A DNA stretch of 64,000 bases from Sphingobium sp. EM0848. GTDB lineage: Bacteria; Pseudomonadota; Alphaproteobacteria; Sphingomonadales; Sphingomonadaceae. Position 1 is the stretch's first letter. Each line of letters starts with the position of its first letter. The stretch covers positions 1,736,001 to 1,800,000 of the forward strand of contig NZ_JABXWB010000001.1 in NCBI RefSeq assembly GCF_013375555.1, read 5' to 3'. Positions 35,483 through 42,170 of the stretch are shown one piece after another. A program made the position numbers and the translations under genes. A model generated the notes under the pieces. That model had not been told where the DNA came from. It ran no database searches and saw only the letters and a list, made by a program, of their open reading frames with translations.

Positions 35483-35940
35483 TTCGGAACAGGTGCCTTG
35501 CGCACCGTTGCGGTCGAGGCCGCGATCAGATTTTCGTCCTGATGGATGGTGAGGCGCAGGAACATCAGCCGCGCCGTCTCCCGCAGCAATTCGACCTCTG
35601 CGCGCAGGATCGAACCGATTTTGCCGGAACCGCAATATTGCATGCTAAGGTCAACCGTCACTGCCGCCGCCTGTTCCGGCCGCCCCATCGCGGCCAGCGC
35701 GGCAAAATAGGCGTGATCGGCAAAACCGGCAAGGAAACCACCATGCAGCGCACCCAGCCGATTGGCGTGCGACGGCGCGCTTTCCAGCATGACCGTCGCT
35801 TTCCCCGCCGTATCGCTCCGCGAATAGCTGGTGCCGATCGCCGTGTCGAGAAAGGTTCCCGGCACGGTGTCGGCCCAGGACAGCCAACCCGCCCAAGGCC
35901 CTTCGGCCACCAGGCTCAGATGACCCGCTCCATCGCTCAC
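35479..35940 (-). CDS. PaaI-type hot-dog thioesterase
   Basis: Encodes 153 residues with a single hot-dog domain. The NRLGALHGGFLAGFADHA segment is the hallmark of the PaaI/YdiI acyl-CoA thioesterase group (HGG turn and acid residue in the following helix). The substrate is unknown. It is translated together with zapE through a four-base overlap and starts five bases after sdhB, so the three genes are one transcript. Confidence 0.85.
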   Translation of the reverse strand: MSDGAGHLSLVAEGPWAGWLSWADTVPGTFLDTAIGTSYSRSDTAGKATVMLESAPSHANRLGALHGGFLAGFADHAYFAALAAMGRPEQAAAVTVDLSMQYCGSGKIGSILRAEVELLRETARLMFLRLTIHQDENLIAASTATVRKAPVPK

Positions 35941-35945
35941 GTCGA

Positions 35946-36734
35946 TCAGAGCTGCCGTTCGACCATCATCTTCTTGGTTTCCGCAATCGCCTTCGCCGGG
36001 CTCAGACCCTTGGGGCAGACATTCGCGCAGTTCATGATGGTGTGGCAGCGATAGAGGCGGAACGGATCCTCCAGATCGTCCAGACGCTCGCCGGTATATT
36101 CGTCGCGGCTGTCAGCCAGCCAGCGATAGGCCTGAAGCAGGATCGCCGGACCCAGAAACTTGTCGCTGTTCCACCAATAGCTAGGGCAGCTGGTCGAGCA
36201 GCAGGCGCACAGGATGCACTCATACAGGCCGTCCAGCTTCTCACGGTCGGCGGGCGACTGGAGTCGCTCCTTGCCGCTCGGCGCCGGGCTGACGGTTTGC
36301 AGCCAGGGCTTGATCGAGTTGTACTGCGCATAGAAATGTGTGAAATCGGGCACAAGATCCTTGATCACGTCCATGTGCGGCAGCGGCGTGATGCGCACTT
36401 CCTTGCCCGAGCATTCCTCGATCGAGGTGGTGCAGGCCAGGCCATTGCGACCGTTCATGTTCATCGAGCAGGAGCCGCAAATGCCTTCGCGGCAGGACCG
36501 GCGGAAGGTCAGCGTCGGATCATATTCATTCTTGATCTTCAGCAGCGCGTCCAGAACCATCGGCCCGCAATTGTCGAGATCGATCTCGAACGTGTCGTAG
36601 CGGGGGTTCTGACCGGAGTCGGGGTCGTAGCGATAAACCTTAAAGCTCTTGACGTTGGTGGCCCCGTCCGGCGCCTTGTGGGTTACACCCTTGGCGCTGA
36701 TCCTGCTGTTCTTGGGCAACGCAAATTCAGCCAT
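35946..36734 (-). CDS. sdhB: succinate dehydrogenase iron-sulfur subunit
   Basis: Electron-transfer subunit of respiratory complex II. The 262 residues from [12 protein letters not shown] contain the [2Fe-2S] motif [21 protein letters not shown] and the [4Fe-4S]/[3Fe-4S] cysteines [16 protein letters not shown] and [17 protein letters not shown]. The genes for SdhC, SdhD and SdhA, which usually precede it, are absent; the divergent glycosyltransferase gene lies directly upstream. It has its own candidate promoter. Confidence 0.97.
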
Positions 36735-36763
36735 CGACAATAATTCCTCGCTAGTTGGCGCTG

Positions 36764-36792
36764 CCATTAACCGCTTGAACCGGCCATCTCAA
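36764..36792 (-). promoter_or_regulatory. candidate promoter of sdhB
   Basis: On the minus strand TTGAGA (36792-36787) and TAATGG (36769-36764) are 17 bases apart and lie about 30 bases before the sdhB ATG. This supports sdhB being transcribed on its own here. Confidence 0.45.
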
Positions 36793-36847
36793 TACCCTAA
36801 TTGCGCGGCGTTGACGCCTTAGCAATTTTTGAAAGTTCCCCCGATAG

Positions 36848-37960
36848 ATGACGAAAATCGCCCTCGTGACCTATGAGATGAATCAGGGCGGCACCAATCG
36901 GGTTCTCTGCCAACTAGCAGACGGTTTTTCAGCTGCTGGCTACGAAACCTTCATTCTATCATGCACTTCCACAGGCATATTGAATAGGCATTTCAGCGAC
37001 AAGCTTTGCAGCAGCGTAGAAAATATCGCACTGAGCAATAGGGCATGGAAAAGCAGAAGCTGGGGACAGATACGTACTTTCATACGCTATCGCCGCTGGC
37101 TGAAAGCCGTCAAACCGGATATCGTGCTCGCGACCGGTAATAATATAAGCTGGTTTTCGGGTCTCGGCACATTGTTGATGCCGGCACCCCGCGCACGGTT
37201 GATCATCAAGACGACCAATCCCATCATTCGCGAGCGCGACGGCGCGTTCGTCAGCACGATCCGCCGAACGGTATACAGTTTTCTTTTCCGCCGGGCCGAC
37301 AAGGTTTTAACCTTGAGCGATGCGGAAACCGCATTGCTGCAAGGTCAATTTCCTTCAGCCTCGGATCGTTTTGCCACCGTTTTCAATGCATATATAACCA
37401 GCCCCTTCGACCGAACCGGCCCCCTCCCCCCAGCACCGGGCCGCACGAGAATTGTTGTAGGAATTGGCCGTTTGGTCGAGCAGAAGAATTTCCCTCGGCT
37501 GCTCCATGCCTTCGCGCAAGGTTCGGACGAAAACGTTGTTCTGAAAATCGCAGGCGAGGGCAAGGACCGCAAAGCACTCGAAAGTCTTGCGAGGGAACTC
37601 GGCATTACCGATCGAGTGCAGTTTCTGGGCTTTGTGCAAGACATTCCCGCATTGCTGGCGAGCGCGGATCTTTTCGTGCTGTCGTCTGATTATGAAGGGC
37701 TTCCAGCGGTCGTAGTGGAAGCTCTTGGTTGCGATTGTCCGGTGATTGCTACCGATTGCTTCGCCAATGCGAAAGATTTACTGGAAGGTTTGCCAGGTTG
37801 CCGGGTTACCGAGCGAAGCGTCGAGGCGCTTGCAGACGCACTGAACGACTGGCTGAGCACATCCATGCCGCGCCCCTCCCTTCGTGATCATGCGGAACCA
37901 TACACCACAGCATCATCCGTTCGCAGCCATATGACAGCCATGCGCCTGTTACCGGCATGA
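36848..37960 (+). CDS. glycosyltransferase family 4 protein
   Basis: Encodes 370 residues of a GT-B retaining glycosyltransferase. The N-terminal acceptor domain starts TKIALVTYEMNQGGTNRVLC; the donor domain has VVGIGRLVEQKNFPRLLHAF, IAGEGKDRKALESLA and SSDYEGLPAVVVEALGCDCP with the E-x7-E pair. Base composition is visibly more AT-rich than in the neighbours, with codons such as TTA, AAT and TTT, which suggests transfer. It is co-translated with the next gene (ATGA overlap). Donor and acceptor are unknown. Confidence 0.9.
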   Translation: MTKIALVTYEMNQGGTNRVLCQLADGFSAAGYETFILSCTSTGILNRHFSDKLCSSVENIALSNRAWKSRSWGQIRTFIRYRRWLKAVKPDIVLATGNNISWFSGLGTLLMPAPRARLIIKTTNPIIRERDGAFVSTIRRTVYSFLFRRADKVLTLSDAETALLQGQFPSASDRFATVFNAYITSPFDRTGPLPPAPGRTRIVVGIGRLVEQKNFPRLLHAFAQGSDENVVLKIAGEGKDRKALESLARELGITDRVQFLGFVQDIPALLASADLFVLSSDYEGLPAVVVEALGCDCPVIATDCFANAKDLLEGLPGCRVTERSVEALADALNDWLSTSMPRPSLRDHAEPYTTASSVRSHMTAMRLLPA

Positions 37961-39036
37961 CTTCAGCCATGGGTCCCATAAGGCTGTTGGGCAACAACGC
38001 CACCCGCATCTGGGGTATGTCGAACGCAGAGCGCTGTCGCCGCATGGCGGAAAGCGCGGGGAGGAGCGGCAGCAGAATGGCTCCTGGCCATATACTGCTG
38101 TTCAACCTCCAATACGTCTTCGATCCCATGCTGTTGAGGTTGGCGCTGGATGAGCCGGGCACGTTATTCAGCTGGGGCGGAACGCCGATTGTCGGACAAG
38201 TGACAACCGATGGCGATCCTTTAGCGGCACCAAATATCGTCGACCTGTCGGATGGGCGGAAGCTCTATAATCGCCAGTTGCGCAAGCTGGAGCAGCCCTT
38301 CGTCAAGGAACTGACCCCAGCCACCCGGCGGGAGATCGAGCGGCGCAGCTATTTCGGCGCCTATAAGGGCGTGACCGACCTGCTGACCAAATATCTCTGG
38401 CCCGAACTGGCATTGTGGCTGACCCGGCTGGCGGCGTCGCTTGGGATAACGCCCAATATGGTGACGGCGCTCGGTGCGACGCTCTGCGTGGTCGCGACCT
38501 GGTTCTTCGCACAGGGACTCTACTGGACGGGAATGCTGGCCGGCTTCGCGTTCATGGTGCTGGATACCGTGGACGGCAAGCTGGCGCGCTGCACCATCAC
38601 CTCGTCCAAATGGGGCAATGTCGCGGACCATGGCGTGGATCTGATCCACCCGCCCTTCTGGTGGTATTTCTGGGGCGTGGGCCTTTCCGCCTGGGGCCTC
38701 GCCCTGCCAACGCAAACCTTCGCGCTGGTGATGGCCGCCATTGTCGCGGGCTATGTGCTGCAACGGTTGATCGAAGGGATGTTCATCAAGGATTTCGGGA
38801 TGGACATCCATGTCTGGGGACGGTTCGACAGCTGGTTCCGGTTGATCACGGCGCGGCGCAATCCCAATATGGTGATCCTGTTCTTCGCGCTGCTCACCGG
38901 GCGCCCGGATATAGGACTGATCGCGCTGGCCTGGTGGACGGTGATCTCGCTCCTCGTCCATGCCTTGCGGCTGTTGCAGGCCTATGGCGTGAAGCGCAAT
39001 GGACAGCCGATTGTCAGTTGGATGGAGGCGGCATGA
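37957..39036 (+). CDS. CDP-alcohol phosphotransferase with extra N-terminal domain
   Basis: Joins a CDP-activated alcohol to a second alcohol, making a phosphodiester. The 359 residues hold the complete catalytic motif DTVDGKLAR, eight residues, then G-x3-D-x3-D (Asp203, Asp206, Asp224, Asp228), in a bundle of membrane helices from about residue 150. The first 150 residues form a soluble domain of unclear fold; its position, followed by a K-GVTD-LL linker, recalls bifunctional inositol-phosphate cytidylyltransferase/DIPP synthases, but no nucleotide-binding motif remains. The gene overlaps the HIT gene by four bases. The alcohol is not known. Confidence 0.8.
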   Translation: MTSAMGPIRLLGNNATRIWGMSNAERCRRMAESAGRSGSRMAPGHILLFNLQYVFDPMLLRLALDEPGTLFSWGGTPIVGQVTTDGDPLAAPNIVDLSDGRKLYNRQLRKLEQPFVKELTPATRREIERRSYFGAYKGVTDLLTKYLWPELALWLTRLAASLGITPNMVTALGATLCVVATWFFAQGLYWTGMLAGFAFMVLDTVDGKLARCTITSSKWGNVADHGVDLIHPPFWWYFWGVGLSAWGLALPTQTFALVMAAIVAGYVLQRLIEGMFIKDFGMDIHVWGRFDSWFRLITARRNPNMVILFFALLTGRPDIGLIALAWWTVISLLVHALRLLQAYGVKRNGQPIVSWMEAA

Positions 39037-39461
39037 ACGCGACGATCGAGAAATTCGGCTTTCCCGCAACGCTGGTCGCCGAGTTCCGCCATTGGGTCGT
39101 CCTGCTGCGCCCGGCGCAGCCGACGCTGGGATCGCTGGTGCTGGCGGCGAAGTCCGACGCGACGGCCTTCGGGAATCTGCCGGGCGAAGCCCATGCCGAA
39201 CTGGCCATCGTGACCAAGGCGATCGAAAGCGCGCTGACCCAGCCCGTCGGCTATCAGAAGATCAACTATCTGATGTTGATGATGGTCGACCCGCACGTCC
39301 ATTTCCACGTTCTGCCCCGCTATGAGGGCAGTCGGGAACAGGCGGGTATCGTGGCTTCCGACGCTGGATGGCCGGGACAGCCGGACCTGGGCAGCGCGGT
39401 GAAGCTCACCCCTGGGCAGATCGCCGCGCTGGCCGATTGGCTGAAGCCCTATTTCGCGTAG
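39033..39461 (+). CDS. HIT family nucleotide hydrolase/transferase
   Basis: Encodes 142 residues with the histidine-triad motif HVHFHVLP (His88, His90, His92). HIT proteins cleave or transfer nucleotidyl groups, for instance on dinucleotides or nucleotide-linked alcohols. Co-translated with the CDP-alcohol phosphotransferase, it may act on a CMP-containing or nucleotidylated intermediate of that pathway; this is inference. Its last 13 bases overlap the 3' end of the opposing nucleotidyltransferase gene. Confidence 0.85.
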   Translation: MNATIEKFGFPATLVAEFRHWVVLLRPAQPTLGSLVLAAKSDATAFGNLPGEAHAELAIVTKAIESALTQPVGYQKINYLMLMMVDPHVHFHVLPRYEGSREQAGIVASDAGWPGQPDLGSAVKLTPGQIAALADWLKPYFA

Positions 39462-40216
39462 CGCCCTTCGGCCAGCCAGCGGGCGGTGAGCGCCTTCGCC
39501 GCCTCGACATCCTGCGGGAAGTCGACTTCCTGCCAGTCCAGCCCCTCGATCGAGACGGTGCCGACGCGGTTGCCCTTGGCGATGATGTCGATGGCGCGCA
39601 GATACCAGCGCTCGACACCCTCGGGCGTCCGCATCATCTGATCGATCTGGTTGCGGAAGATCGCAGGCCCCTCGCCCCTGAACGCCAGCATGCCGATGGA
39701 TTCGGCATTGGTGTCCGGCGGCAACAGCCGCTTGCCGATGGCGTGAAGGCGGCCCGTCTCGTCCCGGTTCACCTTCATGTCGTCATCGTCATAATCGCCC
39801 GGCTTCACATCGACGGTGACGGTGATGGCGTCCTGCGCGCCCTCGATCAGCTTCGCCACGATCTCATCCGACACGATGGTGTCGCCGTTGAGGATGATGA
39901 AGTCCCGGTCCATCTCCTCCCGCGCGATCCAGCAGGTGCCCAGATTGTCCGCGACCTGAAAGAAGGGATTGAACATGGTGCGGATGCGTGCGCCCGTATC
40001 GCGGTAGAGTTGCAACGCATGATCCTCCACCCGCTCAGTGCGAAATCCGGTGACGACGACGATATCGGTCACGCCATTGGCGACCAGCGCCGCGACCTGC
40101 CAGCTGATGAGGGTCCGGCCGTTGAAATCGATCATGCATTTGGGCACGTCGCGGGTCAGCGGCAACAGGCGCGACCCCTGCCCCGCGGAAAGGATGATGG
40201 CTTTGGTGATGCTCAT
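39449..40216 (-). CDS. nucleotidyltransferase (NTP transferase domain)
   Basis: Activates a phosphorylated sugar, polyol or amino-alcohol with a nucleotide. The 255 residues from MSITKAIILSAGQGSRLLPL contain the nucleotide-binding loop (residues 10-16), the PKCMIDFNGRTLI segment and FIILNGDTIV with a metal-binding Asp. The best family fit is the inositol-phosphate or phosphocholine cytidylyltransferase branch. It is encoded opposite to its neighbours but between the phosphotransferase and flippase genes, and would supply the CDP-alcohol. Confidence 0.82.
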   Translation of the reverse strand: MSITKAIILSAGQGSRLLPLTRDVPKCMIDFNGRTLISWQVAALVANGVTDIVVVTGFRTERVEDHALQLYRDTGARIRTMFNPFFQVADNLGTCWIAREEMDRDFIILNGDTIVSDEIVAKLIEGAQDAITVTVDVKPGDYDDDDMKVNRDETGRLHAIGKRLLPPDTNAESIGMLAFRGEGPAIFRNQIDQMMRTPEGVERWYLRAIDIIAKGNRVGTVSIEGLDWQEVDFPQDVEAAKALTARWLAEGRYAK

Positions 40217-40329
40217 GGCCCGCCGCCTTAAAGCAAAGGACATGGGATGGACAGCCTGTGTTGCATCGCACCCGCCCCGATCCTAGATAGGCGCGCGCCC
40301 AGACGGCGGCGTCGCATCGAAAGGCCGGA

Positions 40330-41667
40330 GTGTCAGTGAAGATCAAGCGCGGATCGGGTGGCGCCCAGGAAGGCTTTGCCCGCATTCTGGCGAATACCGG
40401 ATGGCTGCTGGGCGGCAAGGGCGTGGGCGGGATATTGAGCCTTGCCTATCTGGCTATCGTCACACGAACGCTGGGCGTGGCGGATTTCGGGCGGTTCGCG
40501 CTGGTGCTGAGCGCTGCCAACGTCATCCAGACGCTGGTGAGCTTCGACAGCTGGCAGATCGTCGTGCGCTATGGCCAGCCGCATCTGGCGGCGGGCAATG
40601 GCGATGCGCTGAACCGGGTGCTGCGCTTCTGCATCCTGATCGACCTCGCGTCCGCGGCCATTGGCGGGCTGATCGCGGCCTTCATCATCCTCGCCTTCGG
40701 ACCGTTGATGGGATTGTCGGCGGGGATGGGGTGGCAGGCATGGATCTTCTGCATGGTGATGATGATCACCATCCGGTCCAGCCCGACCGGCGTGCTGCGC
40801 CTGTTCGACCGGTTCGATACGGGCGCCTTTGCCGAAACGATGATCCCGGTCGGACGGATGATCGGCGCCGTTCTGGCCTGGGTGCTGATGCCCAATATCA
40901 CCGGCTTCCTGATTGCCTGGGGGGCCGCCGAACTGCTCTGCGCGGTCAGCTATTGGTCGCTCGCGATCCGGGTCGGCGGCGAGAAGCTGGGGAACTGGCG
41001 GGCGGGCAAGGCGATGGATGCGCGGGTGGAAAATCCGGGCATAGTGGGCTTTCTGACCGCGACCAATTTGCAGACCACCCTGTCGTCCATGGGGCAGCAG
41101 GTGGCGGTGCTGGTGGTCGGCCTGTTCGTCGGGCCGACCGGCGCGGGACTGTACCGGCTCGCCAACCAGCTTGCCAATTCGCTGACCAAGATTTCCGGTT
41201 TGCTTTCCCGCAGCATCTTCGTGGAACTGAGCCGCACCCATTCAAGCCAGGGGCATGAAGCGCTGGGGATGCTGTTCCGGCGGACCAACCGTCTGGCTCT
41301 GATAGCGGGCGGGGTCATCATCGGGCTGATCCTGACCGTCGGTCATCCGTTGTTGGGCCTGATCGCGGGGAAGGCGTTTCTGCCGGCCTATCCCTTGCTG
41401 GTGCTGCTCGGCATTTCAGCCTGCGTCGATCTGGTGGGGGTGAGTTATCGCCCGCTGCTGATGGCGACCGACCGGGCGAGCCTGTCGCTGCGCATCACGC
41501 TGGTTTCCACCGCGCTGCTGCTGGGAATGCAGGCGGCGTTGCTGCCCCTCTATGGCACCGTCGGCGCGGCGGCGGCGAATGTCCTGGCTTCGATCCTGGC
41601 CTTTGCGATGATGGGTCTGGCAAGCCGCCGCGCCATGACAGGGCGTGGCGTCGAGGAACGCCGCTAG
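40330..41667 (+). CDS. polysaccharide/lipid-linked oligosaccharide flippase (MATE/Wzx-like)
   Basis: Encodes 445 residues with about 12-14 membrane helices, starting with NTGWLLGGKGVGGILSLAYL and ARTLG-type sequence (IVTRTLGVADFGRFALVLS), as in Wzx/O-antigen flippases. A GTG start is used. Together with the glycosyltransferase and phosphotransferase genes it points to export of a lipid-linked or phosphodiester-linked glycan. Its stop codon overlaps the stop of the opposing asparaginase-like gene. Confidence 0.88.
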   Translation: MSVKIKRGSGGAQEGFARILANTGWLLGGKGVGGILSLAYLAIVTRTLGVADFGRFALVLSAANVIQTLVSFDSWQIVVRYGQPHLAAGNGDALNRVLRFCILIDLASAAIGGLIAAFIILAFGPLMGLSAGMGWQAWIFCMVMMITIRSSPTGVLRLFDRFDTGAFAETMIPVGRMIGAVLAWVLMPNITGFLIAWGAAELLCAVSYWSLAIRVGGEKLGNWRAGKAMDARVENPGIVGFLTATNLQTTLSSMGQQVAVLVVGLFVGPTGAGLYRLANQLANSLTKISGLLSRSIFVELSRTHSSQGHEALGMLFRRTNRLALIAGGVIIGLILTVGHPLLGLIAGKAFLPAYPLLVLLGISACVDLVGVSYRPLLMATDRASLSLRITLVSTALLLGMQAALLPLYGTVGAAAANVLASILAFAMMGLASRRAMTGRGVEERR

Positions 41668-42170
41668 GGCCGGTCGGCCGGGACGAACGCCCCCTTGGCC
41701 CTGTCCTTCACCACCTTGTCGGCGCGGAAGACGGAACCGCTCATCGTGATATAGACCCCCGGCTCCGCCATCTGAACCGTGGCGAAGGCCATGCCGAGGT
41801 TGAAGCTGGCGTCGCTCTCGCCAAAGCGCGCCGGGGCCAGCGCGCCGACCAGCACCACCGTCTTGCCGGGGATGGCGGCGAGCAGCTTCGCCGTTTCCGT
41901 CATCGTATCGGTGCCATGGGTGATGATGACATGGCTTTCGGGCGCTGCGGCCACCCGGTCGCGGATCAGCGCCCGGTCGGCATCGTCCAGTTCCAGACTG
42001 TCCTTGCGGACCACTTCCTCGATGCGGAAGGGGCGCTTGACACGACCGATCTCCAGCAACTTCGCCATCACCGTCTCACCGACCTGATAGTCCGACAGCG
42101 CGTCGAAATAGATCTTGTCGATGGTCCCGCCGGTGGTGAGCAGGAGAATGGACGTTTCGGGGGACAACAT
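41664..42170 (-). CDS. short asparaginase-like protein
   Basis: Encodes 168 residues matching only the N-terminal domain of L-asparaginases. TTGGTIDK carries the first catalytic Thr and THGTDTMTETAKLL the second Thr-Asp pair. Full asparaginases have about 320-350 residues with a C-terminal domain that completes the substrate site; it is missing here. Short stand-alone versions exist in proteobacteria. The activity is uncertain. The start at MLSPETSILLLTTGG is preferred to an upstream in-frame ATG. Confidence 0.8.
   Translation of the reverse strand: MLSPETSILLLTTGGTIDKIYFDALSDYQVGETVMAKLLEIGRVKRPFRIEEVVRKDSLELDDADRALIRDRVAAAPESHVIITHGTDTMTETAKLLAAIPGKTVVLVGALAPARFGESDASFNLGMAFATVQMAEPGVYITMSGSVFRADKVVKDRAKGAFVPADRP

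What the first reader, a model, noticed from the sequence alone, without database searches (positions are those of the whole stretch)
36848..41667. Accessory island for a phosphodiester-linked, exported glycan or osmolyte
Five genes that fit one pathway lie between core metabolic genes: a GT4 glycosyltransferase, a CDP-alcohol phosphotransferase, a HIT protein, a nucleotidyltransferase and a flippase. Seen: the first three are chained by ATGA overlaps, and the last two follow with one inverted. Known: nucleotidyltransferases make CDP-alcohols and CDP-alcohol phosphotransferases join them to another alcohol; Wzx-like proteins export lipid-linked glycans. Inferred: the island makes and exports a glycosylated phosphodiester product, possibly a lipid or surface polymer of sphingomonads. 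No such complete set with a HIT protein is known to me.
Basis: partly seen in the sequence, partly recalled or inferred. Interest (0 to 1): 0.7.

Follow-up and report, generated by a model that had tools for sequence, protein, structure and literature searches.

The report
Sphingomonad phosphosphingolipid head-group gene cluster
These genes most likely finish the charged head group of an outer-membrane sphingolipid in a sphingomonad, and comparison with relatives points to a small HIT protein and an exchangeable transferase as unrecognised parts of that pathway.

Summary
The five genes are real and arranged as described. The likeliest reading is not a new island but the sphingomonad form of the Caulobacter ceramide-diphosphoglycerate (CPG2) sphingolipid pathway. 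The CDP-alcohol phosphotransferase (CDPT) is CpgA-like, the nucleotidyltransferase (NTP) CpgD-like, the HIT protein occupies the place of CC_1157, and the flippase resembles the flippase of complete clusters (33% identity). Ceramide-synthase-, ceramide-kinase- and LptF/LptG-like genes lie about 50 kb away in the window's own genome.

The genes travel together. NTP occurs in 59 of 59 CDPT-bearing and 0 of 13 CDPT-lacking genus genomes. Of 239 Alphaproteobacteria 12 have both HIT and CDPT (1.3 expected), 7 HIT only, 4 CDPT only.

GT4 is the odd one out: low GC3, while at that place 51 of 59 relatives have a TagF-like transferase, 5 a GT4, 3 neither.

New here: HIT as regular partner (a 2024 paper calls CC_1157 'probably unrelated'), and an exchangeable GT-B slot. 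Enzyme chemistry in this organism is inferred. The predicted six-helix CDPT argues against a lipid acceptor, and CpgC, Spt and CerR were not found in the 9% of the genome examined.

The parts
36848..37960 (+). GT4 glycosyltransferase, 370 aa, in the exchangeable slot between sdhB and CDPT (a TagF-like transferase in 51 of 59 relatives)
   Evidence: PF00534 E 1.3e-33; GC3 0.58 against 0.79-0.86 in the other four genes; 55% and 45% identical GT4 at the same slot in L053 and L084/L086; slot counts
37957..39036 (+). CpgA-like CDP-alcohol phosphotransferase (CDPT), 359 aa: degenerate cytidylyltransferase-like N domain plus six-helix catalytic domain
39033..39461 (+). HIT protein, 142 aa, counterpart of CC_1157 by position
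   Evidence: DP-x-VHFH-x2-PR in 14 of 14 aligned relatives, with the first His of the triad replaced by Y or Q in 3; 54-55% identical to the HIT protein of complete clusters; co-occurrence
39449..40243 (-). CpgD-like nucleotidyltransferase (NTP), predicted CTP:phosphoglycerate cytidylyltransferase, 264 aa (255 aa if it starts at the second Met, 40216, as in many relatives)
   Evidence: PF00483; 48-50% identical to the cytidylyltransferase of complete clusters; CpgD residues G12 R16 K26 N110 G111 D112 M147 match at one constant offset, N90 T93 K161 S170 W201 only after shifts of 1-3, Thr88 does not
40330..41667 (+). MOP-family flippase (PF01943), 445 aa
   Evidence: 33% identical over 382 positions to the flippase in the Roseomonas marmotae sphingolipid cluster; NTP and FLIP adjacent in 43 of 59 genus loci

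Best explanation
The locus is the head-group-finishing part of a phosphosphingolipid pathway of the Caulobacter CPG2 type. NTP (CpgD-like) makes CDP-glycerate from CTP and phosphoglycerate; CDPT (CpgA-like) transfers phosphoglycerate from CDP-glycerate to a ceramide-phosphoglycerate acceptor, giving a second phosphodiester. HIT (CC_1157 counterpart) is an enzyme of the same pathway, most likely one that cleaves a nucleotide from an intermediate or by-product. The GT-B enzyme in the first slot, GT4 here and TagF-like in most relatives, decorates or extends the head group, and the MOP flippase and a second LptF/LptG pair move the lipid outwards. Shown in Caulobacter by others: CpgD activity and the genetic need for CpgA. 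Shown here: family, gene order, co-inheritance, slot exchange. Inferred: substrates in this organism, the roles of HIT and GT4, and flippase cargo.
For: CDPT and HIT are 44-45% and 54-55%, NTP 48-50% identical to the corresponding genes of two complete clusters (Roseomonas marmotae plasmid, Diaphorobacter plasmid pDCB2). The Roseomonas cluster also has epimerase, fatty acyl-AMP ligase, ACP, aminotransferase, lipid kinase, LptF/LptG and a flippase, the gene set and order described for C. crescentus CC_1152-CC_1168. The same order with Pfam-identified AMP-binding, Epimerase, Aminotran_1_2, DAGK_cat, Metallophos, LptF/LptG, FA_hydroxylase and GNAT genes is seen in unnamed alphaproteobacterial loci. 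CpgB/CpgC-like genes directly follow CDPT in 11 of 15 class-level loci, 6.7 kb away in one, absent in three, and are in 19 of 80 named sphingomonad loci. The window's own genome has CerS-like (43%), CpgB-like (29%), LptF- and LptG-like (27-29%) genes at C1:1827608-1833929, 50 kb from FLIP. Co-inheritance: NTP 59/59 against 0/13; HIT in 44 genus genomes: 37 both, 6 neither, 1 CDPT only; 28 other genomes of the order: 8 both, 20 neither; class: 12 both, P 1.5e-12. Independent: the 2024 paper reports that Z. mobilis lacks both CC_1159 and CC_1157. No myo-inositol-1-phosphate synthase in this genome.
Against: The CDPT model has six transmembrane helices; PMC4634129 says this architecture goes with soluble acceptors and lipid acceptors with three or four more helices. 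CpgC-, Spt- and CerR-like genes were not found in the 515 kb of the 5.64 Mb genome examined, which leaves 91% unsearched. CpgD residue matching is good only in part (7 of 13 named residues at one offset). HIT without CDPT in 7 and CDPT without HIT in 4 of 239 class genomes; G043 has CDPT without HIT and only a 37% NTP; G074 has NTP without CDPT or HIT. FLIP has no match in G032 and G042, which have CDPT. NTP and FLIP also belong to broad families. The Fisher and hypergeometric figures ignore relatedness. No Caulobacter sequence was in hand: CC numbers are assigned by gene order as described in the papers. CpgA and CC_1157 have no shown enzymatic activity.
Confidence: 0.7

Rival explanations
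1. A soluble phosphodiester (di-myo-inositol-phosphate or glycerophosphoinositol type) is made: NTP makes a CDP-polyol, CDPT joins it to a soluble phospho-alcohol, and the product is an osmolyte or a precursor.
Against: No myo-inositol-1-phosphate synthase in the genome (with the family found in 6 of 14 control genomes); synteny with ceramide and lipid-export genes; a flippase would have no obvious role.
Confidence: 0.1
2. The locus makes a glycosylated phospholipid on the mycobacterial plan (HIT-like gene, PgsA, acyltransferase, GT4 PimA): CDPT makes a phosphatidyl-polyol, GT4 glycosylates it.
Against: A dedicated cytidylyltransferase is needless if the donor is CDP-diacylglycerol; GT4 is not conserved in the locus; no inositol synthase; closer relatives lie in sphingolipid clusters.
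Confidence: 0.07
3. A teichoic-acid-like or other surface polymer on an undecaprenyl carrier is made here, flipped by the Wzx-like protein, with no link to sphingolipids.
Against: No initiating phosphoglycosyltransferase, polymerase or ligase was noted at the locus; CDPT, HIT and NTP travel with ceramide genes outside the order.
Confidence: 0.1

Closest known systems
Caulobacter crescentus CPG/CPG2 phosphosphingolipid pathway (CpgA CC_1159, CpgB CC_1160, CpgC CC_1161, CpgD CC_1152, CC_1153, CC_1158; PMC11324152, PMC12275187, PMC13228409, PMC10331486)
   Same: CDPT and NTP counterparts, HIT in the CC_1157 place, a flippase, and lipid-export and ceramide genes elsewhere in the genome; the 2024 paper predicts the pathway in Sphingomonas wittichii with genes scattered over 6 regions.
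   Different: Locus split off beside sdhB; GT4 or TagF-like gene fused into the operon; CpgB-like gene 50 kb away and CpgC not located; HIT kept as close partner although the paper calls CC_1157 probably unrelated.
Alternative inositol-lipid cluster of Bacteroides/Prevotella: NTP transferase, CDP-alcohol phosphotransferase, HAD hydrolase, MIPS (PMC9246714, passages)
   Same: NTP plus CDPT; a HAD gene is at the locus in 20 of 51 named records not titled Sphingobium.
   Different: No MIPS in this genome; HIT, GT-B slot and flippase are extra; no HAD at the window locus.
Archaeoglobus AF2299 and IPCT-DIPPS (PDB 4o6n, 4mnd)
   Same: Whole-length fold, including a cytidylyltransferase-like N domain; CDP-glycerol is a reported AF2299 donor.
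   Different: Only 13-16% identity; reported not to process lipids; different gene neighbourhood.
Mycobacterial PIM operon (Rv2614c-Rv2610c; PMC3229680, passages)
   Same: CDP-alcohol phosphotransferase, GT4 and a nucleotide-related gene together.
   Different: Acyltransferase present, no cytidylyltransferase or flippase described there; PgsA uses CDP-diacylglycerol.
Wall teichoic acid glycerophosphotransferase TagF
   Same: The usual occupant of the GT4 slot has the GT-B fold with TagF among tied best matches and PF04464 precomputed for some homologues.
   Different: Pfam scores 15.1 and 15.4 are below the 22.1 cut-off; UDP-GlcNAc epimerases and GT1 enzymes score as high; the window itself has a GT4.

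Membership tests
Class I CDP-alcohol phosphotransferases | DxxDGxxAR-x8/9-GxxxDxxxD signature | tested here: met
   18 of 18 aligned proteins, window included
CpgA (CC_1159) | Gene neighbourhood with CpgB, CpgC, phosphoesterase, LptF2/G2 and ceramide genes | tested here: inconclusive
   Not at the window locus; met for homologues in 11 of 15 class loci for CpgB/C and in two annotated plasmids; CerS-, CpgB-, LptF/G-like genes 50 kb away in the own genome
CpgA (CC_1159) | Needed to convert CPG to CPG2 | not testable with these tools
   needs a deletion and lipidomics
CpgD (CC_1152) | Catalytic R16, K26, D112 | tested here: met
   P0004 R25, K35, D121 at one offset, invariant in 14 of 14
CpgD (CC_1152) | Substrate and CTP contacts G12, T88, N90, T93, N110, G111, M147, K161, S170, W201 | tested here: inconclusive
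   G12, N110, G111, M147 match at one offset; N90, T93, K161, S170, W201 only with shifts of 1-3 chosen by eye; T88 (backbone contact) does not; the CpgD sequence was not in hand
CpgD (CC_1152) | Makes CDP-glycerate from CTP and phosphoglycerate | not testable with these tools
   enzyme assay needed
HIT superfamily | Histidine triad H-x-H-x-H with nucleophile in the middle (nucleophile position recalled) | tested here: met
   HVHFH in the window; middle and last His kept in 14 of 14, first in 11 of 14
HIT superfamily | PF01230 gathering score | tested here: not met
   20.9 bits against 21.5; hits solved HIT proteins weakly, best E 4.9e-5
MOP flippases | PF01943 above cut-off | tested here: met
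   33.9 against 28.2 bits
GT4 glycosyltransferases | PF00534 above cut-off | tested here: met
   116.4 against 26.4 bits
Inositol-phosphodiester or inositol-lipid systems | myo-inositol-1-phosphate synthase in the genome | tested here: not met
   PF01658: 0 matches in the own genome, found in 6 of 14 controls
Phosphonolipid systems (PntC type) | PEP mutase | tested here: inconclusive
   PF13714 has one partial match (44.6 bits, positions 65-150 of 240) in a 586-aa frame, not examined further
TagF-like transferases (usual slot occupant, not the window's gene) | PF04464 above cut-off | tested here: not met
   15.1 and 15.4 and 17.3 bits against 22.1 for three proteins scanned; precomputed PF04464 in some of the 120 listed homologues

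The most novel reading that the evidence does not exclude
The HIT protein is a missing enzyme of CPG2 synthesis, removing or transferring the nucleotide in an activated-ceramide intermediate, and the GT-B slot beside CpgA turns the sphingolipid head group into a strain-variable surface structure: a TagF-type polyphosphoglycerate chain in most sphingomonads and a glycosylated form where a GT4 has replaced it.
Probability: 0.2. Interest if true: 0.8.

Novelty: new variant of a known kind. Interest (0 to 1): 0.52.

Why it matters
The CPG2 pathway lets Caulobacter live without LPS, and its authors state that enzymes are still missing. Sphingomonads depend on sphingolipids in place of LPS. If HIT is a pathway enzyme, a gene set aside as probably unrelated becomes a direct candidate for a missing step, testable by one deletion. 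If the slot is exchangeable, the outer-membrane sphingolipid of these bacteria varies between strains as O-antigens do elsewhere.

Tried and rejected
Inositol: no MIPS in the genome. Phosphonate: one partial PEP-mutase-type match only, not followed. NTP2 (second, MobA-like nucleotidyltransferase, CC_1153-like) as a fixed partner: rejected for the genus, since genomes without CDPT also have it, e.g. G010 and G023; in the own genome it is at C1:139976. HAD as a fixed partner: at 2 of 59 genus loci. A literature link of these genes in sphingomonads: searches returned 0 papers, 49 and 73 nothing on these genes in their listings; the CPG2 papers came only, after neighbourhoods had pointed to lipid export. 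These cover open-licence papers only; no supplementary files could be read, so the annotation of CC_1157 was not seen. Search of solved structures for CpgD itself: not in the 60 rows listed. CpgC search by protein: among the 120 best of 5588 matches, no row whose printed name says Sphingobium, which is no evidence of absence.

Structural absences: no row for a UbiA-type or other function was used as evidence against membership.
Full report
What is there. Pfam and NCBIfam place them as GT4, CDP-alcohol phosphotransferase (CDPT), HIT, nucleotidyltransferase (NTP) and MOP flippase (FLIP). HIT is just under the Pfam cut-off. GT4 has GC3 0.58; CDPT, HIT, NTP and FLIP have 0.79-0.86.

Conservation in the genus. 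CDPT is found in 59 of 72 other same-genus genomes. I fetched stretches of up to 20 kb around all 59 (L036-L094). HIT directly follows CDPT in 57, NTP is in 47, FLIP in 44, NTP and FLIP are adjacent in 43, and sdhB is present in 54 (some stretches end at contig ends). NTP orthologues (at least 140 bits; one, G043, only 37% identical; one, G005, in two pieces) are in all 59 CDPT-bearing genomes and in none of the 13 others, whose best match has E 4e-9 or weaker. For HIT 44 genus genomes were searched: 37 have both, 6 neither, 1 (G043) CDPT only; of 28 other genomes of the order 8 have both and 20 neither. In three of these 8 (G081, G087, G092) HIT and CDPT lie on different contigs. G074 has NTP alone.

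Conservation beyond. In 239 Alphaproteobacteria drawn evenly from the class, CDPT (E 1e-30 or better) is in 16, HIT (E 1e-15 or better) in 19, both in 12, 1.3 expected, hypergeometric P 1.5e-12 without correction for relatedness. HIT alone: 7. CDPT alone: 4.

Link to sphingolipids. Outside Sphingomonadales CDPT is directly followed by a DAGK_cat lipid kinase and/or a 306-aa protein of no Pfam family in 11 of 15 loci examined, with one more 6.7 kb away and three without. One of the 16 class genomes with CDPT, G199, was not fetched. Around them are a metallophosphoesterase, HIT, LptF, LptG, a fatty-acid hydroxylase, a GNAT protein and two nucleotidyltransferases, and in L224 and L225 an AMP-binding enzyme, an epimerase and an aminotransferase (Pfam run on L221, L224 and L225 members only). 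This is the gene order of the C. crescentus sphingolipid region in Olea-Ozuna 2024 (PMC11324152; abstract, outline, section 8 part 1, section 9 and passages seen). Two plasmid records annotated by others show it: Roseomonas marmotae p1318-4 and Diaphorobacter JS3051 pDCB2, with 'HIT family protein' between LptF/LptG permease and metallophosphoesterase in both, apart from a small overlapping DUF2141 gene in the first. That is the place of CC_1157, between CC_1158 and LptF2 CC_1156. The window's CDPT, HIT and NTP are 44-45%, 54-55% and 48-50% identical to these proteins, FLIP 33%. The paper calls CC_1157 probably unrelated, yet reports that Z. mobilis lacks CC_1159 and CC_1157 together, which fits the co-occurrence seen here.

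Known chemistry. CpgD makes CDP-glycerate, preferring D-2-phosphoglycerate (PMC12275187, parts 1 and 2 of 4 read; preprint PMC13228409, parts 1 and 2 of 5 read). CpgB is a ceramide kinase (PMC10331486, passages). CpgA is proposed, not shown, to use CDP-glycerate. Of 13 CpgD residues named in those texts, 7 match the window protein at one offset, 5 more only after shifts of 1-3 that I chose, and Thr88 does not. Identity of substrate is therefore inferred mostly from gene order.

The own genome. In 515 kb examined (window included; 9% of 5.64 Mb), CerS-like, CpgB-like and LptF/LptG-like genes lie together at C1:1827608-1833929, 50 kb from FLIP; CpgC-, Spt- and CerR-like genes gave no match at E 1e-6 there. 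The AMP-binding matches in L239 and L240 are 25-28% and unspecific.

Conclusion. The pathway is known; this locus is its sphingomonad form. What I believe is new is the tie between HIT and CpgA/CpgD, and the exchangeable GT-B slot. The HIT reaction is a hypothesis: HIT enzymes act on nucleotidyl bonds (recalled), and the 2024 scheme needs a step that removes a nucleotide, for which S. wittichii lacks the phosphoesterase CC_1158.

Noticed in passing
L259 (NZ_CP065408.1 48756-73841): A CPG2-type cluster (two CDP-alcohol phosphotransferases, HIT, LptF/LptG, lipid kinase, cytidylyltransferase) sits on a conjugative IncP plasmid of Diaphorobacter sp. JS3051, beside mercury-resistance genes.
   Followed up: partly
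L197:8053-11335 (G000:C5): A second TagF-like, GT2 and MOP-flippase group in the window's own genome on another contig.
   Followed up: partly
L093, compared with window 35900-41700: sdhB, HIT, NTP and FLIP are 90-95% identical in DNA, but the GT and the N-terminal part of CDPT are replaced, as after allelic exchange.
   Followed up: partly
L103-L108: Other families of the order carry a different, 450-460 aa CDP-alcohol phosphotransferase near a nucleotidyltransferase and, in 5 or more loci, an inositol-1-phosphate-synthase-like gene: a separate inositol-type cluster.
   Followed up: no
L168:5802-6722 and A5: The CpgC-like 306-aa family has invariant FYGS-x-L and DFY motifs that recall polymerase-beta-type nucleotidyltransferases (resemblance recalled, not tested); it matches no Pfam or NCBIfam family.
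   Followed up: no
between HIT and NTP, e.g. L069, L071-L074: In several genus loci extra genes lie between HIT and NTP, including an Omp85-superfamily protein in L072.
   Followed up: no
L083 (G043): One genus genome keeps CDPT but has lost HIT, has an inverted TagF-like gene and a 37% identical NTP.
   Followed up: no
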